NCBI GenBank assembly: GCA_011032825.1
Contig: JAADJZ010000002.1
Location: 806,001-870,000 of the forward strand
Direction of reading: 5' to 3'
DNA: 64,000 bases
From: Massariosphaeria phaeospora
Taxonomy: Eukaryota > Ascomycota > Dothideomycetes > Pleosporales
A model generated the notes under the pieces. That model searched no databases. It was not told the DNA's origin and worked only from the letters and a program-made list of their open reading frames with translations. Below, piece after piece: positions 33,211 to 52,724 of the stretch. The first letter of the stretch is position 1; each line of letters opens with the position of its first letter. A program made the translations under genes and the position numbers.

Positions 33211-33615
33211 CCTATAGCGTCGGTGGAGGTTGGGTTGGAGTGGCTGGGTGTAGACTGTTGTGCGATGGAGGTCGGTGGCCAGCAGCGGGGTTTTATCTGT
33301 GTCGGGGTATCAGCCCGCAAAGGCATAGCTAGAGTCTGGTGAATAGCCAAGCTGCGCGGAAGCGCCAGATGGGAACATTTTAGGGCCATGAATTTGTCCA
33401 TGCAGCCCAAAGCTAGGACATGAACACCTTGAGGTCTTGGCGGTGAGATGACGCAGCGATGGAGTCTCCGTCGTGACGCTGAAGAAACGTAGTCTCAGGC
33501 GATATTGAAGCTTTCACGTGAGGCGGCTTTTCACTAAATAACTAGGTAGCTTGGCGGGGCGGGGCGCAGCTCGGCTAGCGCACGGACACTGACGCGGGTG
33601 GTCCGAGCGTCTACT
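33211..33615. other. Intergenic region upstream of paralogue 2 and the hairpin locus
   Basis: About 400 bp with a short GC-box-like GGGGCGGGGCG at about 33556-33566; no gene seen. It could serve as a divergent promoter. Confidence 0.5.
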
Positions 33616-33620
33616 TCCTC

Positions 33621-33630
33621 AATATATATC
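33621..33630 (+). promoter_or_regulatory. TATA-like element ahead of the hairpin array
   Basis: AATATATATC followed by about 100 bases of pyrimidine-rich sequence, the usual layout of a fungal Pol II core promoter and start-site region. The first clear hairpin is about 150 bp downstream. Confidence 0.5.
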
Positions 33631-33770
33631 CCTCCGCTGCGCCCTCACTCCGCACCCAACTTCTATTTGTCGCTTTTCTCACCACCTCCACCTACTTTGT
33701 TTTCACTCCGCCCGCGGTCTGAGCTGCTGATCCCAGTCTCAGCCGTCTTCTCTTTATCTTCACTCCCACG

Positions 33771-34630
33771 CGCAAAGGGTCGCTCCCTTTGGTCTGCAAC
33801 CGCGCGCAGGTCAGAGAAACTTTGCTCTGGCCTGCATAGCGCAGAAGTCGGAGAAACTTTGCTCCGGCTTCACCCGCGTAGGGATGAGAGAAATGTTGCT
33901 CTCGTCTCTGCAGCTTAGAGAAATGTCGCTCTATTCTGCATTGCGCACCCGCGTAGGAGGCGAGAGAAATGTTGCTCTCGTCTCTGCAGCTCAGAGAAAT
34001 GTCGCTCTGTTCTGCATTGCGTAGAGGAAGTTTGGAGAAATGTTGCTCCATTCTTCACCCCCTGTGTAGGAGCCGAGAGAAATGTTGCTCTCGATCTCTG
34101 CAGTTCAGAGAAATGTCGCTCTGTTCTGTGTCGCGCAGAAGGCGTAGGAGCCGGGAGAAACGTTGCTCTCGGTCTCTGCAGCTCAAGGAAACGTTGCCTG
34201 TGCCGCATTGCGCAGAGCCTTGAAGAAATTTGCTCCAAGGCTCACCTCGCGAACGCTGGAGAAACTTCGCTCCAGTTAGTCTGTATGAGCAGCATCAGAG
34301 AAACGTTGCTCTGGTCTGTTTGCGTGGGAGGTATCCATTCCTCTAATAGTATCACGCACAGGGTTAGTGTACTCCGGTTCCTCTCCCTGTTTGCATACCG
34401 CGCAGCACTTCAAGGGTCACTCCTTTTGGTCTGCAATCCCCGCGCGAAAGTGAGAAAAATCCTTCGAGCTTTCGGTTTGCGACCTGGGCGAAGGGTTGGT
34501 ACCCCTTCGTTCAGCAATCCCAGAGTGATCTGATTGATCTCTGGAAGAGAGCTAGAACTCTCCTGTCACACCTCGCGGGTGCAAGTCTGCCCGAGGTCCC
34601 TCACAGGCCTCAACTTTTTTTCGTTGAGTT
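33771..34630 (+). ncRNA. Candidate structured RNA: array of covarying short hairpins
   Basis: At least 14 units share the core GAGAAAYKTYGCTC or a close variant, with core starts at about 33814, 33851, 33888, 33918, 33964, 33994, 34035, 34077, 34108, 34155, 34186, 34222, 34259 and 34298. In each, the bases before and after the core pair: CAGAG/CTCTG, CGGAG/CTCCG, GAGAG/CTCTC, TAGAG/CTCTA, TGGAG/CTCCA, CTGGAG/CTCCAG, and one with a G-U wobble. The stem changes on both sides together while the 8-base loop stays nearly constant. Spacing alternates about 30 and 37-47 bp. A related AAGGG...CCYTT hairpin plus GGTCTGCAA occurs near both ends (about 33773 and 34408), and a CTCAAC-T7-C-GTTGAG hairpin lies at 34609-34628. 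Transcription is inferred from the TATA-like element only. Confidence 0.55.
34609..34628 (+). terminator. Hairpin with T-run at the end of the array
   Basis: CTCAAC, seven T, C, GTTGAG. The T-run would stop RNA polymerase III or form the loop of a small hairpin; whether it acts as an end signal is inference. Confidence 0.3.
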
Positions 34631-34995
34631 CCTTTCCTACATGGCGAGGGCTTGAAGAAGATTGCCGTATACTTATGTCTGGCGTATATGGATAACGTAG
34701 CATGAACACCTTCGTCGGTAAAGACTTATGGTGAAGGCTTATGGTGAGGGTGACGACGTTGACATATGTGGAGTTGTCCTATGCTTCAATGCACGGGAAC
34801 ATGCGAACCGCTCACACGATTTGAGATGCGCAGTCAGAAATTCAAGATTTTGGCATTTCAATCAGATTATAAGAGAAGCCCGGTAACCCTGAATGTGCAG
34901 TGGACTTTGAAAGTCACTGCCGTCCCACTTCCGTCGCTTTTAACCCCATGCATGAAACCATTTTGAGAAACGTGCCAGTCGAGCCTGATAGCAAG
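34631..34995. other. Intergenic, no gene seen
   Basis: 365 bp between the hairpin locus and the 3' end of the secreted cysteine-rich gene. Confidence 0.5.
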
Positions 34996-35428
34996 CTATT
35001 TGCACCAGCCGCACTTCTGCTTGCACTGTCATAGCATGTATCAGCGCCTTGAGAACCAGAATATGCGTTCAGAATACTCACGTCCTCGAACCTGCACACG
35101 TCGTTCCTGCAAGGCCGGGTGCATGCGATCGGAATGATGAAGCAATACCATTTCTACAGAGCCGTTAGCTGAATGTTTTGTGCGGAGATGATGGGCCCTG
35201 GACCCTCTTGCAGTCGCGGAAACGCTTGTCGCACTTGTCGCATTCTGCGTTGGCGGAAACTTCGTCGTTGTCGGGTGTGGCAATGGCGGTAGGATCCTCG
35301 TTCTGGATTGCTGCAATGGCAGTAGGAGCCTCGTTCTGGATTGCGGTACCGATCGTGGGAACCTCGACCTGGGGTTTTCCAATGACGAGGGCAGCGATGG
35401 CCGCCATGATGAAGATGGAGAGCTTCAT
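34996..35428 (-). CDS. Small secreted cysteine-rich protein (effector-like)
   Basis: Three exons, 35428-35204, 35153-35082 and 35025-34996 (introns 50 and 56 bp; the first has a GCTAAC branch and GTAG acceptor, the second GTGAGT...GACAG), give 108 residues. A signal peptide (MKLSIFIMAAIAALVIG) precedes a low-complexity segment with two imperfect copies of AIQNE-x-PTAIA and an acidic patch. The C-terminal 43 or so residues hold ten cysteines: CDKC, then RDC, WYC, IAC, RPC, DVC, EDC, QKC and GWC. The last 30 bp exon encodes only CKQKCGWCK. Size, signal and cysteine count match candidate effectors or antimicrobial peptides. TATATAG on the minus strand lies about 100 bp upstream. Read unspliced, the frame ends early and loses seven cysteines. 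Confidence 0.72.
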
Positions 35429-35833
35429 GGTTGCTGTGGACGTGGAAGTCGGATGAGGTGGATGCTTTGTTAGGGCTGGAGTGTTGAGAGGAAGAGAGAG
35501 AGGAAGAGAGGGAAGATGACCGACTCTTATATAGGGTAAAGCTGGGCCAGCGGCTGGGTGAAGGCGGTAAGAGGGCCAGCGGCGGGGTGAAGGCGGTGAG
35601 AGGGCCAGCGGCGTAGGTAAAGTTGAAGTGACGGTGAGAGTAAAAGTAATAGAGGTCCGCACGTGCGAAGTGATGAAGGCTTTAGAAGTGAATGTGAAAG
35701 ACTAGTATATTTTACTCAAGTGAAGGTGAATATTGGGCACCGAACTTTCGTGCACGTGGCAACTCCCACAAACCAAATCTCTCCGCACAGCCACTCAATC
35801 AAAGCGAATTACATACGGACATGCACTCTCATC
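35429..35833. repeat. Promoter region with a 29-30 bp minisatellite
   Basis: About 2.5 copies of a GGGCCAGCGGC...GGTGAAGGCGGT unit at about 35543-35616, upstream of the TATA-like element (35526-35534) of the cysteine-rich gene. No coding signal. Confidence 0.7.
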
Positions 35834-36930
35834 CTAGCTCTTGAAATTATCTTTTCGAATCTTGGTCCCAGTCTTCAAAGCATTCCACATGGTGTGTCCG
35901 TCATCCATCATCAAGCCTACATGGTGAATACCTTCAGGGTTGTTGGCACAGTCGCATTTGCCGCCGAAGAAGACCGCATCACCAGCGCGTCTATTCGCCC
36001 ATTCGATCTTCCTATAGCGCATGGTTAGCCTCAGATGCGAAGCTACGTACACACCGGGAGATATGAGATCATAGCCCACGACAACCACTGGGCCTTTACA
36101 AAACGCCATGGTATCTACCACACCAGGTAATGTCCCAGTAGAGCGAGTAGAAGCGTCGGACGTAGGTGCACTTACTTGTACTTTAGCTTGCTCTCTTTCG
36201 CACAGTACATTGACCTTGTCACCCGAAGACCCTCGGAGAATAGATCGCGCCCAGTCACCTTGCATACAGCCCATGAGACGAGGCCGGAGCAGTCGAAGCC
36301 ACCACCAGTCGGGCCCTTGCAGTTTCCTCCGGCCCAGTGATCTAGTGGTTTCGTCAGTAGGGACATTCACTAAATATCATTTGAAAGCTACTAACACGGT
36401 AGCCCTTCCGCTTCCTTAGCCTTCGCCAGGATCTTCTCTCCTATATTGGGTGTCGGCTTTGGTTTGGAGGTTGCGCTGGGCTTCTCCGGCGGAGGGCTCG
36501 ACTTTGGCGGCTCGCTTGGCTTTGGCTCTTTACTCGGCTTCGCGGTGGTCGTTGAATTGCTGGTAGCGCTTGGTAGCGCCCCTGTAGGAATCTCGTTCGT
36601 CACGCAGCATCTGAAGGCATCCGGCCCCGGGCAGAGGTATTGAATGAGGCTTTTCCCGCCCCCACATTTATCGACCCATCGACAATCACCCTTTCTCGCC
36701 TCGAGCTGGCACGACGTCTTGGTACAGCATTTGATGTCTTCGGGCGTGCCTGGACACGCGTTGGAGATATATGTGCCGTTATCGCGTGTGCATGAAGCTG
36801 TTGGAACGCAGACTCCGACAGCACCGTTTTCACCGGTACAAGGCCCATTGATCCTCGCTGTGGGAGAAGCGACGTTGGCGTTGACTGCCGTAGCTGCGAG
36901 AAGGAAAAAGGCAGCTTGGTATGCGCGCAT
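35834..36930 (-). CDS. Secreted NlpC/P60-family peptidase with cysteine-rich N-terminal repeats
   Basis: Exons 36930-36396, 36341-36176 and 36011-35834 (introns 54 and 164 bp) give 292 residues. A signal peptide (MRAYQAAFFLLAATAVNA) is followed by two cysteine-rich repeats (NACPGTPEDIKCC and YLCPGPDAFRCC), then a Ser/Pro/Lys-rich linker (KPSKEPKPSEPPKSSPPPEK) and the catalytic domain. Catalytic cysteine is in GGGFDCSGLVSW and histidine in GIHHVGLMMD. NlpC/P60 enzymes cleave peptide bonds in bacterial cell-wall peptidoglycan or related amides. The second intron was set by phase: splicing at AA|GTAAGT joins LKYKK to IEWANRRAGDAVFFGG as in relatives. Same strand as the adjacent small secreted protein, 405 bp away. 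Confidence 0.85.
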
Positions 36931-38721
36931 TTTAACAGAGCGGTGAAAGCACTAGAATATCGGAACGAATGACTAGGGTAAGGAAGGTAGGGCTGGCGAA
37001 AGGGACATTCACATCGGCACTACGAAGATCATATATGATCCATCGAGGAAGCAAAAAAGGAGAGATTTCGCAAAGCTGAGATCTGAAACCGTAAAGCTGT
37101 ACAGCTGTTCGTGTTAGTCGCTCTCACATCTAGCTTCGGGAATCGTATCTGCAGATTCATCAAATTGCCGCGCGGGCAAAAGGCTTTCCATCATGTTTAG
37201 CGGGGCTACCCGGACCATTTGCAGTCGTAATTCGCATTCGCAGCTCTGTTGACCGGTTGTGCCTCAAAAGTCTAGGGGGAAACGTCGATGTAAAGTATGT
37301 ACAGCCGCGGCGCAATCACCGGATACGAGTCCGGACTTGCCAAGCCGCGCCGCTGAGATGCACACGATGATGCCACGACTCTGATAGCGAATGGAAAGAT
37401 TTCGTGAGATGTTGCGTGGCGTAGATCGTGGTTAGTACCTGCATCTGTGCCTCGTAGCCCCAGATGAAGTGTAACGGTGGCGTAGCCAGTGCTTCGTGAG
37501 CCCCAAGTTTAGATGTTTGTGCGGGGTTCAAGAATTGGCTGAGATGAAAACTTTAGGTTGAGAACGATGCTATCCAGTAGGTGTATAGACGAAGAAAGGT
37601 ATTCCAAGGTTGGGAGGGAAGTACTGATGTTTTCCGGCTCGACAGCAGTGACGTGATCCTTCCAGGCTTAGTTATAGCTGACCCCGCACCCACGTGATCA
37701 ACCACAATCACGTGCGCAAGCACCTGCCGCTTCAATCTCGCTCAGATACCTGGGTTGCGTTTCGATATAATGGTCAAGAGACTCTAGATAAAAGCCTACA
37801 GAACTGTACCACTTTGTCAATACAGCGCGGTCGAGATTTGATGTGACAGGGCTTACATAGCCAACAGGTTCGCAGCCGGTCTCTTCACTTCCCCTCAATG
37901 CCAGGTGCTTGAGCAATTTCATCGTCGCAGACGCTGAGAAAATGTGAAGATATCAGAAAGTTGGCGCCAACTATGGGTGAGGGGACACGTTGGTATTTCG
38001 AGAGACGCAGAGGTAAGCCCGCACCCTAGTATTTTCCCGGGCAATGCCTCTTTCGTCAGGTACACGCAGCGCAACTCCACGATACAAAAACGCCATCCCA
38101 CTAGGAACGGTCCGACCCGACCACATGGTGTGCGCATGCACGCTCCTTCACTGTGCACAACCCCGTCACCGATAAACCCGCAGACCAGCGATAACGGATA
38201 TGCCACTCTCAAGAATGGGTGAAGAGTAATAATTTGTGTTGAAGCGAGTCCGAAGTTTATCGCTGCATTCAGAGGGCTTTATAGTGCTGACATGCATGAC
38301 ACGGAGACATATCAGCCCTAAAGACGCATCTCCGATCATTTGCAGAAGGCAGCGTGGAGAACGAAATTGAATTGTACTGGGATATGATGCATGACGAGTT
38401 AGGCAAACAATGGTTTTCATGAAGATTCCATCCGCGATTAGCGGACCCTGGGGACAGGTTTGGGGGCGGGAAGGAACAAGCCTGCACACTAACTCTCTAG
38501 CCGCCTGCAAACAGCTGGCATTGTCTGATTAGTCTGCGGGAAGGGCCCGATGCGTCTGTGACGCCCACGCAGATTACACTAGCCCTACCGATCGCGCATG
38601 ATTATATGAGGTGCATGTTCGTCAACGGTAACACAAGCACGATGATCCAGCCTTATTCCAGTTGTTTATGCCACCCGCTTACTCACTCTAACCCCTTCGG
38701 CTCCACCGAAACCCACGCCCT
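36931..38721. other. 1.8 kb interval without a supported gene
   Basis: Open frames of 60-114 codons on both strands show no domain. A 74-codon minus frame at 37922-37698 is the most protein-like but has no recognisable relative. The region separates the secreted-protein pair from the polyketide genes. Confidence 0.5.
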
Positions 38722-40446
38722 TCAACGCGTCCACCCCACAAGCAACTGCTGACTCTCCGCTTCTAGACTGTCCCCCTGCGAACACCCCACGGTGTCAAAC
38801 CCCGCGCGCCGGAATGTCGCCATCCACTTCTCAGCAGCCTGAATCGGGTATCCCTTTCCGCCCTCGGCGAGCCACCAACCATCCAGTAGTCCGAAGCAGA
38901 TATCGTACCAATTAACTGGCCGTGTGACTTCTGCAAGTACCATGAATCCTCCCTCGCGCAGCGTCCCATGGAGTCTACAACAGGCGGCTGTGCGGTCCGA
39001 CGCTGCGTGCACTGCGTTTGCGCCGATAACAATGTCGAAGTGGTTGCGGAATGGTTCCGCTGGGTCTTTCTCGAAGTCGAAAGTGCCGAAGGATACCCAC
39101 GGGTACTGCTTGAAGCGGCGTTTTGCTTGGGCGACGAATGCTGAGGATATGTCTGTGATGGTGTACTCGATTGCTCTATCCGTTTGACCGAGTCCTTCGA
39201 CTAATCGAGCCGTAGCACTCCCGGTCCCAGCACCAACTTCCAAAATGCGCAAAGGCGTGCTCTCATCGCTTCTGCGCTCAGTCGCAAAATTGACTACAAA
39301 ATGTACGAGTTGATCGTTGAGCGTGGACAGCATGGGCGAGTCGGCGTAGAACGATTCCATAATCCGCAGCGACGACAAACTCCCGAACATGACTGACGCA
39401 GCATCCGTCTTCCCGCTCACGCATTCGGCCAATCGCGGTCCAACGAGTCCCAGCAAATCTGTTTCACGCTTGTATTGCGGGAAGCGCTCTCGTAGAGAAG
39501 CGTTGAGCTTGGAAGAGCCATCAGTCTCCAGTGGAGCGTTGCCGCGAACGAGTCCATCGCGGCCTCGAACGATGATGTGTATTTCGACGAGTAAGTCCCA
39601 CATCCGGTCGAACAGTTTGTTGTACTTCGGCAGGTGCTCGACATCAGAGAAAATGGTACCCGATGGAATATCAGCCAAATCCACTCCCAGAGTGGAAAAG
39701 CCTTCTGTTACGTAGGCAAGCAGCAGTTCGTCAAATGCAGGAGCGACGTCATCCCAATAATTCGAATAGCCTCGTTTCTGGGCCAATGCGTCGAATTCAT
39801 TGTCAGCTTTGGCGAGAGCCCTGAATGGATCCTGGAACTCATCTGGGGTTGTGTCTGAGGAATCATCTAGAGGTGTGTCAATCGTTGGTGAGGTATCGAC
39901 GGGAGAGTCTTTCCGCTCTACAGCCGGTCCATCCGACCTGAATTCGAGGCACTTCCTGAGGCTTCCAACTGTCGTATTCTCATTGAATAGGCTTTCAGCA
40001 ATCGTCGTCGCAAACGCCTCTTCAAGATCTTGTCGCAATAACAGCATCGCCATAGGATCCAATCCCAGCCCGCCCAGTGTCTGAGTGTCGTCAATTTGCG
40101 TAACTTCAAACTCTGCGGCTTGTGAAATCAAGCGTATCATCTTCTCGGACCCAGTGGCATCTGGCTCTTTTGGGATGTTTACAGCAGGTATACTGATTTT
40201 GGCCTTCTCCACTGCAGCTGTGTTGGCATTTTCGTTGGGGAGTTGCTGAAGAATATGTTGCAACGTAGAAACCAGAAGTGCGTCCGCCGAGATTTGGAGT
40301 GCAAATCTGCTCGCCAACTCCGCAGCTAACTGTACTGCCTGCAAAGAGTCGAGTCCCAAATCCTCCAGAACGCTACGGTGAGCGACATCAGCGTGAATAC
40401 CTGTGTAGCCCGCGACGAGCTTCGTAACAATGTCGCTGTTGGCCAT
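38722..40446 (-). CDS. Stand-alone ACP-ACP-C-methyltransferase protein (detached C-terminal part of a non-reducing PKS)
   Basis: Single exon, 574 residues from the ATG at 40446; the open frame extends to 40539, but that stretch shows no homology. Order: ACP1 (residues 1-70, LEDLGLDSLQAVQ, phosphopantetheine serine at 34), ACP2 (about 100-165, GGLGLDPMAMLLL, where residue 131 is proline instead of serine), an acidic Ser/Thr/Pro linker, and a C-methyltransferase domain (about 205-574). The latter has SAM motif LRILEVGAGTGSATA at about 403, ITDISSAFVAQAK, VIGANAVHAASD and RPVNWYDICFGLLDGWW. This is the tail of methylating non-reducing PKSs, which normally follows the ACP in one chain. No KS, AT or thioesterase is present. 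It presumably works in trans with the PKS at 42999-48289. Confidence 0.85.
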   Translation of the reverse strand: MANSDIVTKLVAGYTGIHADVAHRSVLEDLGLDSLQAVQLAAELASRFALQISADALLVSTLQHILQQLPNENANTAAVEKAKISIPAVNIPKEPDATGSEKMIRLISQAAEFEVTQIDDTQTLGGLGLDPMAMLLLRQDLEEAFATTIAESLFNENTTVGSLRKCLEFRSDGPAVERKDSPVDTSPTIDTPLDDSSDTTPDEFQDPFRALAKADNEFDALAQKRGYSNYWDDVAPAFDELLLAYVTEGFSTLGVDLADIPSGTIFSDVEHLPKYNKLFDRMWDLLVEIHIIVRGRDGLVRGNAPLETDGSSKLNASLRERFPQYKRETDLLGLVGPRLAECVSGKTDAASVMFGSLSSLRIMESFYADSPMLSTLNDQLVHFVVNFATERRSDESTPLRILEVGAGTGSATARLVEGLGQTDRAIEYTITDISSAFVAQAKRRFKQYPWVSFGTFDFEKDPAEPFRNHFDIVIGANAVHAASDRTAACCRLHGTLREGGFMVLAEVTRPVNWYDICFGLLDGWWLAEGGKGYPIQAAEKWMATFRRAGFDTVGCSQGDSLEAESQQLLVGWTR

Positions 40447-41091
40447 ATTATCAGGACAATAGTAGAATAACGTGCGGAACGGGGTGGTCTGTGAATCCGA
40501 GATTGTAATGCGGGTGTCTGCAACTCCCCCCCAAAACAACGGCCTTCACTGGCCAGTATTATACGCAGCGCATGCTCAAAAGTACCCCTCCAACCCCGCA
40601 CATCAAAAAGGCAACCTCCACGGTCCGCCCACCGCCGTCGACCGGCTGAATATCTTCGGAAAACGAAACCACGCAATCACTCACTCCGATACCGCAAATC
40701 CGCCCATCTACAAGCAGACATGGCCACATGAAACCCCCCTGTCCTGCATCCAACGGGAATTACTATCTTACCGAGAATCCGGTAATAGTGAGATGGGATC
40801 AGATGTGCATATCCACGTCCAATAGGAACCACTCCAGCTGCGCATACACTCACAAGTGATTGGCGGACCAAAAATGACGGGTGCAAGCGTGACTGCTGCC
40901 GTAGGTAAGATTCCTAGCTTGGCTACATACATGCAGACCGATAAGCAACTGCCAGCACTCCTGTGCGACATCGCGTAGACCAGACCACAACCACCACCTC
41001 GAAAAACTATCGGATAACGCAAGGGGAAAACGGGGTTCGCGAGCATAACTGTCCACCGCTCCGCTCGTGCATCACGCATTTACGGCCAAAA
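40447..41091. promoter_or_regulatory. Intergenic region between the methyltransferase genes
   Basis: 645 bp containing the promoter of the ACP-CMeT gene and the 3' flank of the O-methyltransferase. A 117-codon plus frame (40472-40825) has no recognisable domain. Confidence 0.5.
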
Positions 41092-42433
41092 CTAGCCCGT
41101 CCACACCACCTCGACGATGTGCATAGTGCGTCCGGAAGCCATGCGCACTGCATTCAGCACGAATCGGGAGTCGGCCGCCTTGAGCAACTTCTCGAAGTCG
41201 ACGCGGCGCCGCTCCTTGCCGTTGAACATGGCCGCCATGATCATGTCGAGCTGGAAGCCGAAGCGGGCGGAGAGATCCGTAACCGGCTTGTCTTCCAGGA
41301 CATACTCGTAGATCAGGATCTTGGTTCCCGGTCTGAGTGCCGGTCGCAAGTTTTGCAGAATCTGGACAGCGTACTTGTCGCTCCAGTTATGCAAGATGTA
41401 CCGGAGGAGGAAGGCAGCCGGTGGATCCTCCGTGGCCTGTTGCGGCTCGAGGAAGCTGTGGGCTAGGAAATCGACACGGCTCTTCAGCGTGTCGGAGACC
41501 TGGCTGCGTTGGCTGCGCCCTACCTCGACAACTTCAGGCAGATCCTGCACCACGAAACGGACATGTTTCGTATGCTGCGCAAGGAAGTAACTGATTTGAC
41601 CGTGGCCCCCACCGATATCTACAATCGTAGCGCCAGGATAGTCGAGTTCGGGTGCTGTCCAGTCAAAGGCCGTGAGGATATGACGAAGATCCCAGCTATC
41701 GCCTTTAGTGTAGTGACCCATGGCACTGCCGAACCGGCGGCCTCTCTCAGGCTCCGCGGCGTATATCCCAAAGGTGGGTAGATCACTCTGGTTTTCCATG
41801 CTGAATGCGGTCCTAGACTGCTCGCCCACATCGTGGCCATGTCGGTTCCAAACTTTAGGGAGCCTCAATGCGGCCGGCGCAATATCTTCGAGCTGCAGCC
41901 CCACGGAATCATGCAACTGGCTGTCGGTCGCAAGCTTGCGCGAAGAAGCGGTATGGCGGACACGACCTGTCGCAGGATCCTCATCGAACAGATTGCTACC
42001 CATGGCGCAGCGAATGAACCTACGGCACAGATCCTCGTGGAGACCAGACGATCCCGAAATCTCGGCATAGGAAGCAGTTCCTTCAAGCGGGACAGCCTTG
42101 GCAAGGTTGTAGTGATAGATGACCAGAAGGGGCACTGCATCAGTCCACTGATAAGAACCGGAGTTAGCCAACTTCAGACCCAACTACAGAGGCAATCCGG
42201 GAACTTACACAGAACGTAATGTCCATGATATCCATAACCGCGCCACGTGCCAGTTTCTTCAGTTCATTGCTCCCGTTAGCAAGCGAAGCTCGCAAGTCCT
42301 GATACTCAGCCGGCAGGTCGTCCAGAGGATCGACATGGATGGATGGGTATGGCAAGTTCTTCTCCTCCAGAGCTGCATCGAGCTGCTTGGCATGTGCGAG
42401 GATAGCTTCGGCTTTGGCGGTCAGAGATGCCAT
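41092..42433 (-). CDS. SAM-dependent O-methyltransferase (COMT-like)
   Basis: Exons 42433-42209 and 42147-41092 (61 bp intron, GTAAGT...TATCAG) give 426 residues. The first half is the helical dimerisation/winged-helix part (YNLAKAVP, then SGLHEDLCRRFIRCAM). The C-terminal half binds SAM: ATIVDIGGGHGQISYFLAQ at about 250, FVVQDLPEVV, RYILHNWSDKYAVQIL with the catalytic histidine at about 326, and ILIYEYVLEDKP. Family members methylate phenolic hydroxyls in fungal polyketides. It is divergent from the PKS across 565 bp and next to the ACP-CMeT gene, so the likely substrate is the cluster's aromatic product. The second-exon frame alone opens with a spurious upstream extension. Confidence 0.92.
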
Positions 42434-42998
42434 GATGTGAACGAGTTGGCGGCAAACAAGTGATAGTGGTGAAACAGATAAGGGTGATGACTGCAGGTTT
42501 TCAAACGGAATGTTGGTTCGATTATTTCCTTGACTGAAGGCCTGCCTAAATAGCCAACTGACGCGGCTTTCACTGGACGCATACAGGGTATGGCTTACGA
42601 GTGCATCCCGATCCTTTTGGAGATTGAGTCAGTCTGCGCTGTTAGTCCGGAGGTACTAGGTTGCATTTGTGCCTTATGCCTTATCAAAGAAGGCAGCGGA
42701 CCGGCCCTTGGATCTACATTACGCTGCATAGAAAGGCTTACGTTCATTTTATCCAGAACCACCTCATCCTGGTTTTTGATGCCCGTGGTACAATCCCCAC
42801 ATCCGGGCTGCAGGAGTGGCTGTTTGAGGGAACCCCGAGCTTATCGACATCTGAGCTGCGTAAGCCCACTATGGACGGGGTATCAATCCTGATTTGTGAA
42901 TTTGGCAAGGTAGAGTCTGTCCTCTCCCTGAAGTTAAAAGTCCAGATCCGAAGTTATTTGTTCTCCAAACCAATATTCAACATTTTACTTTCACCATC
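42434..42998. promoter_or_regulatory. Bidirectional promoter, O-methyltransferase / PKS
   Basis: 565 bp between divergent start codons. It holds CGG/CCG-type motifs (for example GTCCGGAGG at about 42638 and GCGGACCGGCC at about 42694) that could bind Zn2Cys6 regulators; no such regulator gene is seen nearby, so this is suggestive only. Confidence 0.55.
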
Positions 42999-45900
42999 AT
43001 GGCATCCCCTATTGATGTTCTGTACTATGGCGACCAGTCTGTCGAGCCCTTCGTCTCGATCGAAGAGCTTGTCGGCGAGAGCCAGAAGTCTGAATTGCTC
43101 GATAGGTTCCTGCACTCCGTGTTCAAGGCGTTGACTTTGGAGGTCGCTAGTCTTCCTTCTCCAGAGAAAGACTTGTTCTCTGGCAGCTCGTTTGGCGCTC
43201 TTGCAACGTTGATTCGTTCGAAGAAGACCCAGAATGTTGCTGTCTCGACGGTGTTCAGTTGCGTGGCTCAGCTTGGGTGGACTATCGTGTAAGTTTATCT
43301 GTACGCTATGTGATCGATCAGGTGATGATAATAAGACAGACATCGAGAAAAATATCCAGAGAGATGGTCCGGTTCTCTTGATCGGGCTTTGGTGGGGGTG
43401 TGCACGGGTAGCCTGGCTGCAATTGCTGCCATCGTTGCCCGATCTGAGACCGACCTCCTCCGATTAGCTCCAGAGTTTGCTCTCCTAGCTCTTCGACTTG
43501 GCATCGAAGTCTCCAGGCGGAGTCTTAGCCTCGAAAATTCGTCTGAGCCATGGTCTGTTGCCGTCACGAGGGTGTCTCGTGAGGATCTTGAAGCTGCGCT
43601 TGATGCATTCAATCGCTCGCAGGTATGTAGAATGTCACAATTCTGGCATCCAGGAAACGGTTAACAATGTCGTAGAACATCCCTGCGTATAAGAGGGTTT
43701 ACATCAGCGCTCAATCTTCTGCGGGTATCACTTTAAGCGGCCCGCCGACCATACTTCAGTCATTCTTTGAGAACTCGCAGGCCATGAAGGCCGTTCCCAA
43801 ACTTACTATGCCAATTTACGGATCTTTCCACGCATCTCATCTTCCACTCCCCAATGTCGAAGGAATTGTCGGCAATTCCGAATTCTGGAAGCGTCCCATC
43901 ACCGGCGATATGAGGAAGTCGCTCCTGCTTCCTAGTTCAACCGGGGAAGACCAGAATACGTTACATGAATTACTGATCAGTGCCGTAACGGATATTCTGC
44001 AGAATCCAATCGACTTTGAATCCTTAGTCAAACGGACTCAGTCAAAAACCCAAGGAAAGCTGGTTCGTTTTGCTTCAATCGGACCAGCACACACAGGTGC
44101 GCTCAAACGCGCTCTGACCCCCACGGAAATCGAACGTTTCGGCTCGCTAAGCCTTCCCTCCTCGGAGCAGCTTTCACCCAAAGACGACTACAAAGACGCC
44201 ATTGCAATCGTCGGAATGGCCTGTAGATTGCCCGAGGCCCAAACCTTGGACGAGTTCTGGGAAGTGCTCATGCAGGGCCGAGATTTACACCGGCAGATAC
44301 CTCCGGATCGCTTCGATGTCGCAACCCACTATGATCCCAGTGGCAAGATCCCAAACACCAGTATCACCCAGTGGGGTTGTTTTGATGATAATATCGCACA
44401 ATTCGATCTCTCGTTGTTCAAGATGTCGCCTAGAGAGGCTATTCAAACGGACCCGTGTCATCGCATGATGTTGATCACGGGCTATGAGGCGCTCGAAGCA
44501 GCTGGATACTATGATCCAGGCAGTCCTCGTCCGAAGTTTGGTACCTTCTATGGGCAAGCTGGGGATGATTACCGGATGGCCAATTCGGGCCAGAATGTCG
44601 ACACAAACTACATCACCGGTGGCATTCGTGCGTTCGCGCCAGGCCGGGTCAGCTACTTTTTCGGCTGGGAAGGCCCAAGTATGAGCGTTGACACTGCATG
44701 CTCATCGAGTGCAGTTGCAATCCATCAAGCATGTTCTAGCTTGCATCTCCGGGAATCCGATATGGCCTTGGCAGGTGGAGCGAATTTGTTAACGAGTTCT
44801 GACTTCTTCGCTGGACTCAGCCGAGCGAGGTTCGTATCTACGACAGGCCCCTGTAAAACGTTCGACGAGAATGCCGATGGCTATTGTAGAGCGGATGGCG
44901 CTGGATCGGTAGTGCTAAAGCGATACGAAGACGCCATCCGCGACAAAGACAATATCCTGGGAGTCATCCGGTCCATCGAAACCGGCCACGCAGGCACAGC
45001 CATCTCCATTACCCACCCAGACGCCGACCATCAATACGCTCTCTTCTCAAGTGTTCTCGCCAAGGTGGGCATGGACGCCCAAGACATCGATCACGTTGAG
45101 ATGCATGGTACCGGCACTCAAGCTGGAGATCTTGCCGAAACCTCGTCGGTAGCGCGATTGCTGCAAGCAGCGAATCGACCACGACCAAATAACCAACCGC
45201 TAACTATTGCTTCCGTCAAACCGAATGTGGGACATTCCGAAGGCGCTTCTGGCGTCACGTCTCTTATCAAAGCGATACTAATGATGAAGCATCGCGTCAA
45301 CCCTCGCCACATCGGTATCAAGACAAAGATGAATCCGAAGTTGCCGCCCCTGGCCGACTTGGGAATCATTCCTCCACTAGAACACAGGCCTTATGTTCCC
45401 ATTGGTGACAAGGCTCGAATGTTAGTCAACAACTTCAATGCCACCGGAGGCGCCACGACCATGGTTCTGGAAGAGCATACGCCTAATCAAGAGCTCACAA
45501 TTGATCCCAGAGGCTATTATCCCATTGTAATTTCTGCTGCGACTCAAAAGTCTCTCACCAAAGCCATGTCTCGTCTGTTAGATCATCTCAAAGCCGAACC
45601 CGATGTTGAACTTTCGCATCTTTCATACACCTTGACAGCGAGAAGATTGCATCACAGCTATGGCTTTTCGTGTGTTGCGAGTGGCATCAACGATCTCGTA
45701 CAGCAGCTGCAGAGTGCCGGGGCGAGCCCCAGTCGCACTTCCATAACCAAGAGAGGCGCTTTGAAATCGGTAGTGTTCGCGTTCACCGGGCAGGCCGTGT
45801 CTCATATCGGTATGGCCAAGACTCTATACAGAACGAACGACATCTTTCGTGGCCATCTTGTTCAGTCCGATGCACTATGTCGAAACATGGATCTTCCTTC

Positions 45901-48289
45901 TTTCCTGGAAGTGATAGACAATGACAGCTCTGAAGATCTGTCCAGATATGGCCCGACTAAGGCCCAACTAGCCCTTGTCGCCCTGGAGGTCGCCCTCGCA
46001 CATCTCTTCAGTTCGTGGGGTATTCGACCTGTCGCTGTCATGGGCCACAGCCTAGGCGAGTACAGCGCTCTCTGTGTTTCGCAAGCTCTCTCGGTGGCCG
46101 ACACTCTGTACTTGGTCGGGAGGCGCGCGCAGTTAATGGAATCGTTGTGCCGTCCAAAGGAGTATGCGATGATTGCCACATCGCTATCCGCGAAGGACGC
46201 TCAGAAACACTTGGCCAAATTCGATACATGTCAAGTCGCATGCCTTAACGGGCCATCGCAGACCGTGATTAGTGGACCTGACGCTGCCATCGATGACTTG
46301 TCGGCGTACCTAGAGCGCCAGAGTGTCAAGATTAAGAAACTTCCAGTGGATTATGCCTTCCACTCTGCGCAGATGGATCCTCTACTTTCTCAATACGAAC
46401 GTATTGCTGACGGTGTTTCGTTCCACGAGCCGAAAGTACCCCTGGTATCCACATATCTGGGAAGAGCCGCGAATATCGAGGACCTGAATCCCAGGTATGT
46501 ATGCCAGCAGACCCGCCAGGCAGTTAAATTCCAGGAAGCAGTCGAAACTCTCGATTTAGAATACTCTCCTCTTTGGATAGAGCTGGGCCCGGCGCCCACG
46601 TGTTCGCAGTTCATCTCCCTGATTACAGGCACTAGAAACACTGTGGCTGCTCTCGATCCCCGAAAACCCAATTGGCGCACGATCAGCGACGTTGTCACGA
46701 AGCACTACCTCGCTCATGGTGACCTCCGGTGGGATGAATTCCACAAACAATATCTTGATAGCCTGCGTTTGGTGCAGACGCCGTCATATTCTTTCGATAT
46801 GACCAAGCAATGGATCCAGTATGAAGGAAACTGGGGGATCATCAAGAATCATGGACCCACAGTTCAGGCGGCCACAACATCTCCACCGACTGAATCTCTT
46901 ATCAGCTCAACATTGACTCGGTTGGAGAGTGCTTCGGTCAATAAAGATGCCCGAAAGTTAGTCTTCAGCTCAGACCTCAAGGGCCATCGGTCGCCCGAGC
47001 TGGGTTCTGTCTACAGTATCGGCAATGCCACGTTTACTGCTGGATCCATATTTGTGGACATGGCGCTGACAGCAGCTTCGGAACTCTGGAAACGGGTCAA
47101 CATCGACGTTGCGTGCCCGGTCATGGAAGTCGCGTCCCTTGAGCTACTCGATGGTGTTCAACTCGGAGGCAGCGATGGCCAGTTGAAACTCACAGCGACA
47201 CAGCAACCATTCGACGAGAGTATGGTGCAGATCACCATCTCTAATGTCGAGGCTGGGGGCAAGTCTCGTGACCTAGCGAAATGCAAGGTCATATACGGAG
47301 ATAATGACGAGTGGACGGCTGACGCAGATGTCACTTCGTTCCTCTACCAATCTCGGATGGACTTGCTGGAGATGGTCCATAAGAGCACATCTGGTCTCTC
47401 AACCCCTGCCAGCACGAATACGCTGCAAAGCATCCAAGAACTGATCCTCGCCCCGGGTACTTCCGAAGCAGTGGCCAGAATCGTGCTGCAGGCGAGCCAG
47501 GGAGACTTCAAGTGCGATCCCCAGTGGTCCAATGCAATCCTTCAGCTGTCAAGCTTCGTTCTAGCTCGAGAGGACATCTGTTACTTGCTCAGCGGATGGC
47601 AAGCTCTGCGAGTGCTGCGGCCTCTGCAGTCTGGTACCCAATATCGCTGTCATATCCGTGTACAACAAGACGACGCCACGGGCTCGATGACTGGGAATTT
47701 GCATGTCTTTGACTCCGAAGGTCGACCTGTTGCGAAGGTCAAGAATATTCGGTATCAGGCCGCTGGACGGGTCAACAAGCCCTTACTGGGAAAGCCAAAG
47801 GTTCTGCCTCAGGTCGCATGGTCTGATACACAAACGACAACAGTGGTAAACTCGGCCACCAACTCTCCAGCAAGCCCCGAGAAAGCGGCATTCACTGAGT
47901 TGGACCTCACTACCCCGCGCAAGTCTCCGCCGGTGGCTGTCATTTCTCTTCCTCAAGAAAAGACAGATAAGATGAACGGTGTCCCGAAACTAGCCAACAA
48001 AACACAGCCGATGAAGCAATCTTCAGAATCCACCGTCGACATTTCGCAAGTTTTGTCCGTGTTGGCATCTGAATTGGGGATAAATGTCGAAGCATTAGAT
48101 GACCAGGAGCTCCTGGAAGATATGGGTGTAGACTCGATCATGGGGATGACGCTATTGGCAAAGATGCAAGAATCTTTTACGGCGAAACTACCCAGTCAGT
48201 TGCTGGTTGAGCAAAATAGCTTTGGGAAACTCAAAACCTTCTTCGGAAACTGGTCTGCACTACAGGTCCCGATGACCAACGGCGCTTAG
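42999..48289 (+). CDS. Non-reducing polyketide synthase, SAT-KS-AT-PT-ACP, lacking a C-terminal CMeT or release domain
   Basis: Exons 42999-43288, 43340-43622 and 43676-48289 (introns 51 and 53 bp) give 1,728 residues. SAT: GVCTGSLAA with catalytic Cys 118, and SFHASHL with His 243. KS (about 365-790): VDTACSSS with Cys 533, HGTGTQAGD, NVGHSEGASG. AT (about 890-1190): GHSLGEYSAL with Ser 983; its FTGQAVS departs from the usual GQGS. PT (about 1270-1560): the His of HxxxGxxxxP is Tyr 1304 and the Asp of the second motif is Asn 1477. ACP: MGVDSIMGM with Ser 1678. The KS resembles methylating NR-PKS clades (MSPREAIQTDP, GRVSYFFGWEGPS). The chain ends about 50 residues after the ACP serine. It shares a promoter region with the O-methyltransferase. 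The spliced N-terminus restores the SAT domain. Confidence 0.95.
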
Positions 48290-49391
48290 TTATGAAACAA
48301 CGTCGGCAAATGTATTTACCAATTTGATGGCCTGTTTAGGTTGACAGAAGTAGAGTCTTTGCTAGATTTGAGGGTTTTCTTCGCTTCGTCGATGATCTGA
48401 TGGATGGTCTTAGAGATCGAGTGTTGATCTTTCGCTTTTCGTAATATTCGCATATCACCATCTTATTCCCCTTCTCCAACAAAACAAATCCATATCTGCT
48501 GCTGTCCGCTCTTTCCACATCGCCGTGCGCCATTGCAATGCTTCTGATGCCCGCCATGTCGTTCAACCCGGTTGGGCTGTTCCATCGTCCGACAAGATCC
48601 CAGAGAGCTAGCAACACAAAACGATCGCGGCAGGGCCATTTTCGAAGACTTGCAAGATGTCTGTAACATGACCGATGATTGACGCGTCTTTCTCGAGGTC
48701 GTGAGGAGAGGTTGGTGGCGGGGGCTGGTTGGGGCTGGAAACTTTGCACTAGCGCTTGGTCAGAGCTTTCCCGCGGGGCAAGGACGTTCCGAGACCTCTT
48801 CTTGCGTCTCCCTCTCTGCTAGAGGCGTGATAGGGTCTGGCCACACGACTCGTCCCCTCATTGTTTCTACCCAATGTTTGTCTTCGTTGTGTTATATTGG
48901 TCTAGAACATCGGGAGCTTCTTGGAATTGATTCACTGTCACTTTGGCCCAGATCAGCTTATTACAGTCACGAATATACGGAGTATATACGGAGTACTCCT
49001 ATATGCCTAATGAATCCTAACTCCTCCAGATCTATAATCTCTCCAACGAACGCCTGCGAACCCAGAATCCCAGCGAGAATAATTATTAATGCAAGGGGTA
49101 TAGTATGCAGGTAAGCTCGAACAAGACGCCGAAGCTAGACGAGACGAGAGCCAATGTGAGGGCGGCTTCTCTCACTGAAGAATAAACGAGGCAAAAGCAA
49201 GCAATGTGTACCATGCAAAAGCAACAGACGCGGAGAAATAAAACGGTCTTTCATGCACCATGCATCATGCCCAGTGCTCAGCCCTACCGGACCCGGTGCC
49301 GGCAATTACGCACGTGAATGTAAGCTGAGCGCAGCAACATCCAATCGAGTGACAGGTCAGACATAGACCCGAATACAACCTCAACCTCACA
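48290..49391. other. 1.1 kb interval, no gene seen
   Basis: 3' flank of the PKS. An ATATACGGAGT motif is directly repeated at about 48973-48998. A 137-codon minus frame (48749-48336) has no recognised domain. Confidence 0.55.
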
Positions 49392-50384
49392 TCACCGCCT
49401 CGCGCGCCTGGGGCGAGTGCTAGACTCAGCATACCCAGCTGACGTCTGCGAACTGCTCACACAGTCCCAGTTGAAGGGGATAGACGAAGTTGGGATAGTC
49501 ACGCCTTGGTAACGTTGCAGTCGCTCCCGTCGCGGTGGTGGCGATGGTTGCGCAAATGCTTCGCGACGAACATTCTCGAGCGCGTGGTTCGTTGCGGCGA
49601 GCACGGCGAAGCGCCTGTCTGGCACGCGACGAGCGGCTGTGTTCGGCGTACGCGAACGAGCCTGGCGACTAGCTGAGGCTTGTCGGTCGGGCTGACGAGA
49701 ACGGTGGTGGCGAGGTTGAGACCGAGATGATTCGGGAGTCTCTTGATGATCCGGCTCGGTCTCGTGACGGCGGGAAGAGCGCTGGCTGCGAGGCGAGGAA
49801 TCCAAGGTCTGATAACGATGTTCTCGTCTTGAGGGCGTCTTTGGTGGAGACGGCGCAAAGAACGACCACCCTCTTGAACTCTCCGGTTTGACGCTTTTCT
49901 TTGATTTGGAGTGTCGCAGTGGGTCGCGCTTGGCCCCGCGACCATGCAATGTGGTTTGCGACGTGCGTTTGGGATGGCGTTGTCTGTGATGTGGGCTTCG
50001 ATGTGGGCGCGGGTTCAATAGCGTTTCCTGAGATGAATTGCCACTGTCTTGAGCCACAGAACGATGCCACATTGCAGGGACTTGAACATTCAGGTCCGGT
50101 CTGTGCTGTCCCCTACTTCTGTGCGCATCAGGAGCCTGGGATGGTTGTCGAGGGCGGCGCTCTTCCTTGTCCCGTCGCGGGGAGCGCGGGGTCACAGTTT
50201 CTCGGGATCTCTTCTTTCTGGGCGTCTCTTTCGACCTGCGCTTCTCCTCAACCTCCGCGACAACTGGTTCTCCATGGCCGTGGAGTGAATCCGATACCGG
50301 CCGCTCCCGTCTCTTTTTCTCGCCCGACGACGAACTCTTCCGCTTTTTGCCGCCAGGAAGACCGAAGGGGAAACACCAGCACAT
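49392..50384 (-). CDS. Arg/Ser/Pro-rich disordered protein
   Basis: Single exon, 330 residues. The N-terminus MCWCFPFGLPGGKKRKSSSS has two cysteines beside a basic cluster, a pattern often lipidated. The rest is extremely arginine-, serine-, histidine- and proline-rich (KKRSRETVTPRSPRRDKEER is one example), predicted disordered, with many potential SR-type or kinase sites. A short ordered-looking C-terminal segment (RFAVLAATNHALENVRREAF, then IPFNWDCVSSS) follows. A TATA-like element lies near 50473 on the minus strand. A 161-codon antisense frame overlaps but lacks features. The function is unknown. Confidence 0.6.
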   Translation of the reverse strand: MCWCFPFGLPGGKKRKSSSSGEKKRRERPVSDSLHGHGEPVVAEVEEKRRSKETPRKKRSRETVTPRSPRRDKEERRPRQPSQAPDAHRSRGQHRPDLNVQVPAMWHRSVAQDSGNSSQETLLNPRPHRSPHHRQRHPKRTSQTTLHGRGAKRDPLRHSKSKKSVKPESSRGWSFFAPSPPKTPSRREHRYQTLDSSPRSQRSSRRHETEPDHQETPESSRSQPRHHRSRQPDRQASASRQARSRTPNTAARRVPDRRFAVLAATNHALENVRREAFAQPSPPPRRERLQRYQGVTIPTSSIPFNWDCVSSSQTSAGYAESSTRPRRARR

Positions 50385-52724
50385 AGCGATCCTAGAACAA
50401 GTCTCGGATCGCTATGCGCTCAAGTATTGCGTCCAGTATGCAGAAAGTAGGTGTGTTGTGACTCCGCGCATATAGAGGCCCGAGAATCGGCGGTACCGGG
50501 ATCTCCACAGCAGACGGATGCAAGGTGGTACTTATGGATGCGCGGGACAAGCCAATAGTCACGGATCAAGGAAGGCTGGCTGTTTCAAGCAAGGACGGTC
50601 ACGGTATAGGGTGATGAGAAGGGCAAGAGAAGCAGATGGGGTAGTAGTATGATCTCATCCGAAGGGAGCGCGGTTCGGGATGCCTGATAGCAGCGGGCAC
50701 TGCAGCGCGGCGTCGAAGTGCCAATAGCTGCATGGCGACGAGCTAAAACAAGAAAGGATTCATACAAAGTACCTTGTATTGTGGAATGCGCCGGCCAATC
50801 AGGGCGGGGCCGGCCTGATGGTGTGTGGGAAAAGGACGGATTCGTAAGTTCGCGGAGGGGTGGCTTACGGGCCATGTGATCATTCACCCCTCCAGCTGAT
50901 CGACTCATCGTTCCGGCGCACCGTGGGCTGCCCGCGCCGGCAGAACGACGCGCAGAGCGCAGCGCGGTGGATATGCTGTGCGGGCGGCGGCGGGCCTCTT
51001 ATAGGCACTGAGCAGCCCGTTTGAGACGGTTTTATGCCCATTCTGTGCTGATTCTGAGCGTACCTGCGCACTGCAACGTGGCACCTGTGCTGCTCAGAAG
51101 AAGGGCGGGCCGGTGCGCGGGAGGATCCTGGGCAGGGCTATCGATGAAGCTGCATGTGCCCTAGCTGGGCGTGCGAGAGAGACGGCGAGTGACGGGAGTC
51201 TGCTAGCTGCAGATGGGATGGATGGTGGAGTGCAGCAGCTGACGTCGTCGGGGTTGTGGGCTTATCGTTATCGGACCGGCTCGACGCGATTGGCCAGACG
51301 CGCCCCACTGCCGAGCGCCGCCTAAGCGAGAGTGAATGTCCAGTGCAGTCTCCGTTTCAGCCCCCCTCGATCCAAGTCCTGCGACTCAAGCTAACGTGCC
51401 TAGATGCGACGCAAAAGGCGCTGCTGCGGACAGTACCTGCTTTCCCGGTTTCCTGCATTTCAGGTGCTGCTGAGACAGGCTGCCTCGCCGCCTCTGATGT
51501 GCCCCTTGCTGGTGGCGTCGGTGGCGGCTTGGGCTACGCGCCAATAGAGGGCCGCAGGGGCTATTCTCCGTCGCACGGAAGCACGATGGTGTGCAGGGCC
51601 CAGCTCGGGGCGATGCAGAAGGGTGGCACTTGTGCATGCAGACGCAATGACGCGTAGACTATTGGACATCGCCCTGAATTAATAGCCCTTAGTCGCGAGT
51701 TGATAGAGAGTTCATTGGTATGTAGACCCCGAAGTATGTCACTAACTGATTTCTAGAGAAGTTGCTACCTGTAAGTAGCCCAAACCAGAGATGCGGCACG
51801 GCATCTCCCTTTCGGCCCAGGCGGACGAACTTCTGATCGGCGCAGTTCTCTCTCGCAGCGCGCTCCGACAGGTCAACTACGTATTGAATCTGGTCAAGTC
51901 GGCGACTGGACCGGAAGCCCCACGTGTCTACCGCTCAACAGGTTATGTCGATATGTGCCGCTGAGCCTCACTTCTAATGCCTTCATACATAATTGTTCAG
52001 CTCTCCTGTTGTTATCTATTCCAAAGGAGGCCCGATAAGTGTGAAAGCAGGAATACATTCAGATGATGCTCTCACATGAGACTAAGTACTACGAACAAGC
52101 GGTTTGCTAACCGCTATTCTAGCAAATGCAGAGGGTGAATGTCAGACTGCATGTTTGCTATTCGAACATTATCATGATATGTATTAGCGAGCCGCATACG
52201 TTGACAAACTACAGCCTCGAGGTACAAATACCTGAGGACTCCGTGCCGCTGAAAGACTCTATGCGCCGGGCTTCTTTTCGCAGCAAAGACATCTCAATTA
52301 CTACCCGGTCCCTCAACGAATCATACATTGAAACCTTAGCGATCGCGATAGAGAAGAGCCGAATGGTACTTTCACCCAGCTCTTACGGAAACGGGATCTC
52401 CGGTACTAAATAGATAAATTTGCGCGCCTCCAAAAGGATCAACTAACGCATCAATATACCTGTTAAAAAGCTATAATTCTCTACACAGCGTTTACTGAAT
52501 GTTACAAAGACAGAACATCAAATCTAAATCCTACATAGACAGGACTTCAGTTACAAACAACGTAGCGTGTTCAGCCTTAGTTCCGGAGATTCTGTTTCCG
52601 TAAGAGACCCCGCTATCGGCCCTAACATCATCTTTCGAATGAGTCCAAACTGCAGAGTACCTCGACTCACCCAGGAAGAGAGCAACCCTTCCACACCATC
52701 TACAGACGAAATAATCCATCCAAC
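50385..52724. other. 2.3 kb interval, gene-poor
   Basis: No protein with recognisable features. It contains the inverted repeat described at 52378-52609. Open frames at 51113-51325 and 51256-51657 are unsupported. Confidence 0.5.
52378..52609. repeat. Short inverted repeat (possible fold-back element)
   Basis: CTCTTACGGAAAC and ATCTCCGG on the plus strand at about 52379-52404 recur in inverse orientation at about 52576-52606 (28-30 bp, three or four mismatches). Together they bound about 230 bp, like a small MITE. No target duplication is evident. Confidence 0.4.

What the first reader, a model, noticed from the sequence alone, without database searches (positions are those of the whole stretch)
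38722..48289. A methylating non-reducing PKS split into two proteins encoded by separate genes
The PKS at 42999-48289 is SAT-KS-AT-PT-ACP and stops soon after its ACP. Two genes away, on the opposite strand, a separate protein has ACP-ACP-CMeT and nothing else. In known NR-PKSs the CMeT domain follows the ACP within one polypeptide. The gene pair, with an O-methyltransferase between them, looks like a functional two-part synthase with a trans-acting C-methyltransferase that brings its own carrier domain. The CMeT motifs look intact and the frame is full-length, so it is not a simple remnant. I do not know of a described system with exactly this split, but could not search.
Basis: partly seen in the sequence, partly recalled or inferred. 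Interest (0 to 1): 0.87.

Follow-up and report, generated by a model that had tools for sequence, protein, structure and literature searches.

The report
Polyketide synthase with separate carrier-bearing methyltransferase
A fungus encodes a polyketide-building enzyme and, beside it, a separate protein that joins a carrier domain to a carbon-methylating domain; other fungi also keep both as separate genes, which points to a two-part methylating synthase of a kind I did not find described, though its product is unknown.

Summary
In Massariosphaeria phaeospora (Pleosporales) an intact SAT-KS-AT-PT-ACP non-reducing PKS (42999-48289, +) lies beside an O-methyltransferase and an intact 574-aa ACP-ACP-CMeT protein (38722-40446, -). 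Two corrections: the small protein's second carrier has lost its phosphopantetheine serine (Pro131), and the PKS product-template domain has lost its catalytic His (Tyr) and Asp (Asn). No release domain was found nearby.

It is not an assembly accident. Eight free-standing relatives of the ACP-CMeT protein were found; with the window's they form one clade (UFBoot 100), and 9 of 9 keep carrier-1 Ser and the catalytic His and Glu. Three share a contig (by length) with a PKS of the same PKS clade: Xylaria FL1042, Nemania FL0916, one metagenome contig.

It is probably not one gene cut in two: the KS does not group with the three CMeT-bearing NR-PKSs available (AU p about 0.02), while the CMeT descends from fused ACP-ACP-CMeT-esterase PKSs. 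A recruited, carrier-bearing trans-CMeT fits better.

Against: only 2 of 14 named Xylariales-type PKSs had a detected partner. Product, contact and expression are untested.

The parts
42999..48289 (+). NR-PKS gene, exons 42999-43288, 43340-43622, 43676-48289; SAT-KS-AT-PT-ACP, 1728 aa
   Evidence: Pfam; splice; public model P0033
44195..45319 (+). ketosynthase, catalytic Cys and two His present
45773..46600 (+). acyltransferase, Ser and His present
47012..47014 (+). PT catalytic-His position, codon for Tyr1304
   Evidence: the column holds His in 50 of 50 comparison NR-PKSs
47531..47533 (+). PT catalytic-Asp position, codon for Asn1477
   Evidence: Asp in 48 of 50 comparison NR-PKSs, 2 gaps; Asp in 11 of 40 rows of the window's clade
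48047..48235 (+). PKS carrier (ACP), Ser at 48134-48136; the protein ends 54 residues from the start of the GVDS motif
41092..42433 (-). O-methyltransferase gene; probable intron 42208-42148 gives 426 aa (13 frame-keeping introns were listed)
   Evidence: PF00891; splice trials
38722..40446 (-). free-standing ACP-psiACP-CMeT protein, 574 aa, no intron needed
40237..40443 (-). carrier 1, Ser34 (codon 40347-40345), motif LEDLGLDSLQ
39943..40158 (-). carrier 2, phosphopantetheine Ser replaced by Pro131 (codon 40056-40054); modelled as a helical domain, block pLDDT 71-85
39571..39804 (-). HTH_51 (methyltransferase helix-turn-helix) domain
38944..39243 (-). SAM-binding methyltransferase core (LEVGAGTG); catalytic His480 and Glu506
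   Evidence: fold

Best explanation
A two-protein methylating NR-PKS. The PKS starts and extends a short poly-beta-ketone chain; its PT cannot catalyse the usual aldol closure and it has no release domain. The separate protein supplies C-methylation in trans. Its live carrier 1 is probably malonylated by the PKS's AT and used by the PKS's KS as a second carrier, so that the beta-ketoacyl group made on it is methylated by the attached CMeT and handed back to the KS; dead carrier 2 is a spacer or docking remnant. Release is by spontaneous pyrone closure or by an unlinked hydrolase, and the O-methyltransferase then caps a hydroxyl (a C-methylated methoxy-pyrone is my guess). Shown by sequence: domain content, lost and kept residues, conservation, shared contigs. 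Inferred: physical partnership, carrier shuttle, release route, product.
For: Adjacent genes here; the pair on one contig, judged by equal contig length, in Xylaria sp. FL1042 (P0011/P0041, 360439), Nemania sp. FL0916 (P0013/P0044, 520428) and a JGI metagenome contig (P0001/P0036, 57476). Nine free-standing proteins form one clade, UFBoot 100; all 9 keep carrier-1 Ser, His480 and Glu506. Carrier 2 is Pro, Asp, Ala, Ala in four, absent or mostly absent in four (P0001, P0003, P0004, P0013) and intact only in Xylaria P0011: relaxed on carrier 2, held on carrier 1. In the subclade around the window, 7 PKSs (window, P0034-P0039) face 7 free-standing CMeTs. KS and AT catalytic residues are present in 40 of 40 rows of the PKS clade; PT His in 1 of 40 (2 gaps) against 50 of 50 comparison PKSs. 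The model's CMeT matches the citrinin synthase CMeT 5MPT (TM 0.92 by target length).
Against: No hit could be tied to 12 of the 14 named Xylariales-type PKSs, nor to the named lichen (P0046, P0050) and Conoideocrella (P0057) ones, in two searches that scored only the 7995 candidates sharing most words and that limit length (by the stated rule about 316-1004 aa; one search listed 282-1007 aa), so the CMeT is not universal in the clade or is often missed. Five of the 8 relatives could not be tied to a PKS contig; two of those lie on contigs under 5 kb. Gene distance on the shared contigs is unknown. The carrier-shuttle step has no direct evidence. No expression data.
Confidence: 0.6

Rival explanations
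1. Fission: an ancestral fused SAT-KS-AT-PT-ACP-(ACP-ACP)-CMeT PKS was cut into two genes, which still work together.
For: The free-standing CMeT clade lies among fused ACP-ACP-CMeT-esterase PKS ends (node with P0006, P0007, P0009, P0012: UFBoot 79). Published view that the ancestral NR-PKS had a CMeT that was lost several times (PMC8262933, passages).
Against: Trees forcing the PKS clade plus P0091 together with CMeT-bearing PKSs are rejected (AU p 0.0175 and 0.0151, constraint trees from fast searches; p 1.8e-32 when P0091 is kept out of the group). In the FastTree rooted on the genome's own C17 PKS the clade sits among thioesterase-type, CMeT-less PKSs. But only three CMeT-bearing references were available, and not the KS of the CMeT's nearest fused relatives.
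Confidence: 0.2
2. Trans-CMeT with the carrier as a docking handle only: the CMeT methylates chains on the PKS's own ACP, and carrier 1 is not acylated.
For: PsoF and CalH, free-standing fungal CMeT-fold enzymes, came up as fold matches (CalH titled 'trans-methyltransferase'; PsoF pathway titled 'trans-acting C-methyltransferase' in a reference). Carrier 2 shows that a dead carrier can be kept.
Against: Carrier 1 keeps its Ser in 9 of 9 proteins while carrier 2 keeps it in 1 of 9.
Confidence: 0.25
3. Neighbours without a joint function: the CMeT protein acts with another PKS, or is a slowly decaying leftover.
For: 12 of 14 named Xylariales-type and the named lichen members of the PKS clade show no CMeT partner. 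This genome has another CMeT-bearing PKS on C17.
Against: Same-contig pairing in three further genomes or contigs; 12 of 17 pocket positions identical in all nine proteins, the other five changed only among similar residues; intact frame.
Confidence: 0.12
4. Assembly or annotation artefact (inversion, misjoined contig, missed exon).
For: The public gene model of the CMeT protein is truncated (P0153).
Against: Free-standing copies in other sequenced fungi and metagenomes; PKS models end 42-62 residues from the start of the ACP motif in 37 of 39 public rows (one is this gene's own model), the other two being cut at or before the ACP; no carrier or CMeT domain found downstream of the PKS.
Confidence: 0.02

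Closest known systems
Fused CMeT NR-PKSs (citrinin PksCT/CitS and relatives; lichen group IX such as Atr1)
   Same: Same CMeT fold (5MPT), HTH_51, catalytic His-Glu dyad (dyad named in PMC11579551)
   Different: Here the CMeT is a separate protein with its own carrier; the PKS has no CMeT or release domain and its KS does not group with the three CMeT-bearing PKSs tested
PsoF (pseurotin) and CalH (calbistrin), free-standing fungal C-methyltransferases
   Same: Free-standing CMeT-fold enzymes encoded beside a PKS; fold matches
   Different: They serve reducing PKS systems and carry no ACP (recalled; PsoF is named monooxygenase/methyltransferase; CalH is 273 aa in PMC6299560, and a 386-residue chain)
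Group V NR-PKSs (e.g. AdaA, StpA)
   Same: SAT-KS-AT-PT-ACP ending after the ACP, needing release in trans (PMC12139152, passages)
   Different: Partner there is a metallo-beta-lactamase-type thioesterase; none found nearby here; here the PT dyad is lost and the nearest PKSs outside the clade are thioesterase-type
SorB, ClaF, MPAS (NR-PKSs with inactive PT)
   Same: PT dyad replaced (Y/E, N/E, L/E in PMC13300579, passages); here Tyr/Asn
   Different: SorB has its CMeT in the same polypeptide, and removing it stopped production; here the CMeT is a separate protein
AsbPKS plus AsbTE; CitS plus CitA
   Same: A fungal NR-PKS helped by a separate enzyme (PMC11579551)
   Different: The separate part there is the hydrolase; AsbPKS has its MT fused

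Membership tests
Fungal non-reducing PKS | SAT, KS, AT, PT, ACP in this order, no reductive domains | tested here: met
Fungal non-reducing PKS | Working PT dyad (His, Asp) | tested here: not met
   Tyr and Asn; inactive PTs are known in other NR-PKSs
CMeT-type (fused) NR-PKS | CMeT in the same polypeptide as the KS | tested here: not met
   opposite strands; no CMeT found downstream of the PKS
CMeT-type (fused) NR-PKS | KS groups with CMeT-bearing NR-PKSs | tested here: not met
   AU p about 0.02; three references only
NR-PKS CMeT domain | CMeT fold with HTH_51, SAM motif, His-Glu dyad | tested here: met
Group V NR-PKS | No release domain on the PKS | tested here: met
Group V NR-PKS | Partner metallo-beta-lactamase thioesterase | tested here: inconclusive
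   no Pfam match of any kind within 29500-38720 and 48290-52800; genome-wide not searched
Trans-acting fungal CMeT (PsoF, CalH kind) | Free-standing CMeT protein beside a PKS without its own CMeT | tested here: met
Trans-acting fungal CMeT (PsoF, CalH kind) | Methylates the PKS-bound chain | not testable with these tools
   needs expression or an in vitro assay

The most novel reading that the evidence does not exclude
An undescribed class of two-component NR-PKS: a PT-dead, release-less SAT-KS-AT-PT-ACP core of a CMeT-less lineage that took over, in trans, an ACP-CMeT arm shed by a different PKS family, with the arm's carrier serving as an alternative elongation carrier on which methylation happens in cis; kept across Dothideomycetes and Sordariomycetes.
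Probability: 0.38. Interest if true: 0.82.

Novelty: new variant of a known kind. Interest (0 to 1): 0.66.

Why it matters
How iterative fungal PKSs decide when to methylate is an open question, usually framed as a contest between KS and CMeT in one polypeptide. A natural system in which the CMeT arrives on a separate protein with its own carrier would let dose, carrier and contact be varied independently, without cutting a megasynthase. It would also show that NR-PKS arms can be exchanged between lineages as separate genes. And it marks a clade of 39 distinct sequences of release-less PKSs with a mostly dead PT, in Pleosporales, Xylariales and lichens, for which I know of no product.

Tried and rejected
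Considered and set aside: assembly inversion (separate genes recur); decayed remnant (motifs kept in 9 of 9); an upstream exon joining the OMT to the CMeT protein (645 bp gap, an in-frame stop about 100 bp before the ATG, and relatives that also start 38-50 residues before carrier-1 Ser); membership of group V (dead PT, nearest outside relatives thioesterase-type).

Led nowhere: the species name in print (4 papers listed, none opened); a KS tree by IQ-TREE on 91 rows timed out and was replaced by FastTree and a 27-row IQ-TREE. In that 27-row tree the three CMeT-bearing PKSs fall together (UFBoot 80) inside the comparison set, and the PKS clade plus P0091 is split off by UFBoot 100, so 'nested among thioesterase types' depends on the root; what does not depend on it is that the clade is not next to the CMeT-bearing ones. 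One constraint tree (c2) was never finished. For trees and counts I used 47 of the 80 listed proteins P0073-P0152, the clade rows P0033-P0071 (P0072, a fragment, dropped) and four PKSs of the own genome. Domain scans found no transcription factor, transporter, P450 or hydrolase from 29500 to 38720 or from 48290 to 52800; an aldo-keto reductase lies at 52840 and an alpha/beta hydrolase at 57290, not linked to the system by any evidence.

Literature: ten searches of the held open-access library (nine on the subject, lists capped at 8-40) showed no paper describing a free-standing ACP-CMeT partner of an NR-PKS. Subscription papers are mostly absent. One paper reports a Xylaria PKS called KS-AT-DH-ACP-ACP-MT (XyPKS7, PMC13293291, passages), which may be a fused or merged relative; not checked.
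Full report
What is there. The window lies on contig C12 of a 42.1 Mb, 51-contig genome (C12 is 2,441,825 bases). A public protein, 96% identical over 100% of the query, sits on a contig of exactly that length and is labelled Massariosphaeria phaeospora BDV95DRAFT_644000, a Pleosporales fungus. Three genes form a compact group: an ACP-ACP-CMeT protein (38722-40446, -), an O-methyltransferase (41092-42433, -) and a SAT-KS-AT-PT-ACP PKS (42999-48289, +), the last two diverging from a shared 565-bp stretch. Stop-masked domain scans of 9.2 kb to the left and 4.5 kb to the right found no other domain, and the same masking recovered the known OMT and SAT domains as a control.

The small protein. Its frame of 574 codons is open from an ATG in good context. 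Carrier 1 has the usual DSL; carrier 2 has DPM and cannot be primed. The C-terminal part matches the citrinin synthase CMeT domain by sequence (E 5.1e-60) and by fold (TM 0.92 by target length; model from 9 sequences, mean pLDDT 78.5). The SAM motif, His480 and Glu506 are present; these correspond to the catalytic dyad His2067 and Glu2093 of CitS (mapped by me from the alignment; dyad named in PMC11579551, parts 1 and 2 of 3 read). Of the 17 pocket positions named there, 12 are identical in all nine free-standing proteins.

The PKS. SAT Cys and His, KS Cys-His-His, AT Ser-His and ACP Ser are present. At the PT dyad the window has Tyr and Asn. Across the PKS clade (40 rows, 39 distinct because P0033 is the same gene) the PT His is present in 1 row (P0056), gapped in 2 and replaced in 37; the PT Asp is kept in 11. 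All 50 comparison NR-PKSs have the His. P0091, next to the clade, also lacks the His (Cys) but keeps the Asp. Loss of the dyad does not stop such PKSs in principle: SorB, ClaF and MPAS have Y/E, N/E and L/E, and SorB without its PT still makes its products at lower yield (PMC13300579, passages). Of 39 public rows, 37 end 42-62 residues from the start of the ACP motif; P0058 lacks the ACP and P0071 stops at it. So a PKS that ends after its ACP is the rule in the clade.

Relatives of the small protein. The first search (32 hits) and a profile search (31 hits at E 1e-30) gave eight other free-standing proteins: P0001, P0003, P0004 (446 aa, one carrier), P0002, P0005, P0008 (565-580 aa, dead second carrier: Asp, Ala, Ala), P0011 (Xylaria sp. 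FL1042, 583 aa, second carrier intact) and P0013 (Nemania sp. FL0916, 513 aa, second carrier largely missing in the model). They begin 38-50 residues before carrier-1 Ser (34 in the window) and stop shortly after the CMeT. P0006, P0007, P0009, P0010, P0012 and P0014-P0020 I read as pieces of fused PKSs, because PT sequence precedes or esterase-like sequence follows (sequences; Pfam columns). In a maximum-likelihood tree of 25 CMeT domains the nine free-standing ones form one clade (UFBoot 100), joined to P0006, P0007, P0009 and P0012 at UFBoot 79.

Pairing. By equal contig length, and in two cases equal species name, three of the eight relatives lie on the same contig as a PKS of the clade: P0011/P0041, P0013/P0044, P0001/P0036. 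The other five have no listed match; P0003 and P0008 are on contigs under 5 kb. In the subclade around the window there are 7 PKSs and 7 free-standing CMeTs. Against this, 12 of the 14 named Xylariales-type PKSs (P0053, labelled Lasiodiplodia, counted among them by its place in the tree) and the named lichen and Conoideocrella ones have no hit tied to them. The searches score only the candidates sharing most words and limit length, so fused, long or unannotated partners would be missed, but real absence is as likely.

One gene cut in two? In a FastTree of 91 KS-AT rows the PKS clade is monophyletic (support 0.998) and, rooted on the genome's own CMeT-bearing PKS (C17), lies among thioesterase-type PKSs without CMeT. 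In a 27-row IQ-TREE the clade plus P0091 is separated from everything else with UFBoot 100, and the three CMeT-bearing PKSs (P0092, P0099, C17) group together elsewhere with UFBoot 80. Forcing them next to the clade is rejected (AU p 0.0175 and 0.0151). Published work places loss of the CMeT before groups I to V diverged (PMC8262933, passages). The simplest reading is that the CMeT arm came from another PKS lineage, lost its esterase and became a partner protein. The main weakness is that the KS of the CMeT's closest fused relatives was not available.

How it probably works. In fused NR-PKSs the CMeT methylates the beta-ketoacyl chain on the ACP in competition with the KS (PMC11579551). Here the CMeT must reach the chain from another protein. 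The steady retention of carrier-1 Ser next to the decay of carrier 2 suggests that carrier 1 is loaded and used. My preferred model is that the PKS's AT and KS use carrier 1 as an alternative elongation carrier, so that methylation takes place in cis on the small protein. A pure docking role is the main rival. With a dead PT and no release domain, spontaneous pyrone closure is the likely exit; thioesterase-free pyrone release is reported for a truncated type I PKS, and pyrophen-making fungal NR-PKSs are said to have no thioesterase partner (PMC10204065, passages). The O-methyltransferase would then cap the ring. Product, contact and expression are inference.

Position among known systems. Free-standing fungal CMeTs are known: PsoF (title of a paper cited in PMC7421883) and the CalH candidate (PMC6299560, passages). 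Release in trans is known for group V (PMC12139152, passages) and for CitS and AsbPKS. I found no description of a carrier-bearing CMeT partner for an NR-PKS in ten searches of the held library (listed in Tried and rejected), which lacks most subscription papers. I therefore file it as a new variant of a known kind.

Noticed in passing
G000:C17:544500-554400 (L018): The genome's only other listed HTH_51 match is a fused KS-AT-PT-ACP-CMeT NR-PKS, with esterase-like sequence at its end and an intact PT dyad; its branch in the KS tree is very long (about 2.3 substitutions per site).
   Followed up: partly
window 1-14000: G+C falls to 31-44% against 50-58% in the rest of the window, with few long frames: an AT-rich block of the kind left by repeat-induced mutation or old mobile elements.
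   Followed up: no
window 38725-39603: The public proteins hold only a 293-aa model (P0153) starting at an internal ATG of the CMeT protein, hiding both carriers; similar genes may be mis-modelled elsewhere.
   Followed up: partly
window 47846-48007: The public PKS model P0033 leaves out 54 residues of the PT-ACP linker, as if an intron; the stretch is in frame, so either reading gives an intact protein.
   Followed up: no
P0053: A PKS labelled Lasiodiplodia mahajangana groups with Xylariales sequences; Lasiodiplodia is a Dothideomycete genus (recalled), so the label or the sample is probably wrong.
   Followed up: no
P0091: A 1218-aa environmental PKS piece next to the whole clade already lacks the PT His (Cys), keeps the Asp, and ends after its ACP.
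   Followed up: partly
window 49395-50411 (-): A 339-aa open frame directly right of the PKS has no Pfam match; it could be a missing cluster gene or not a gene.
   Followed up: no
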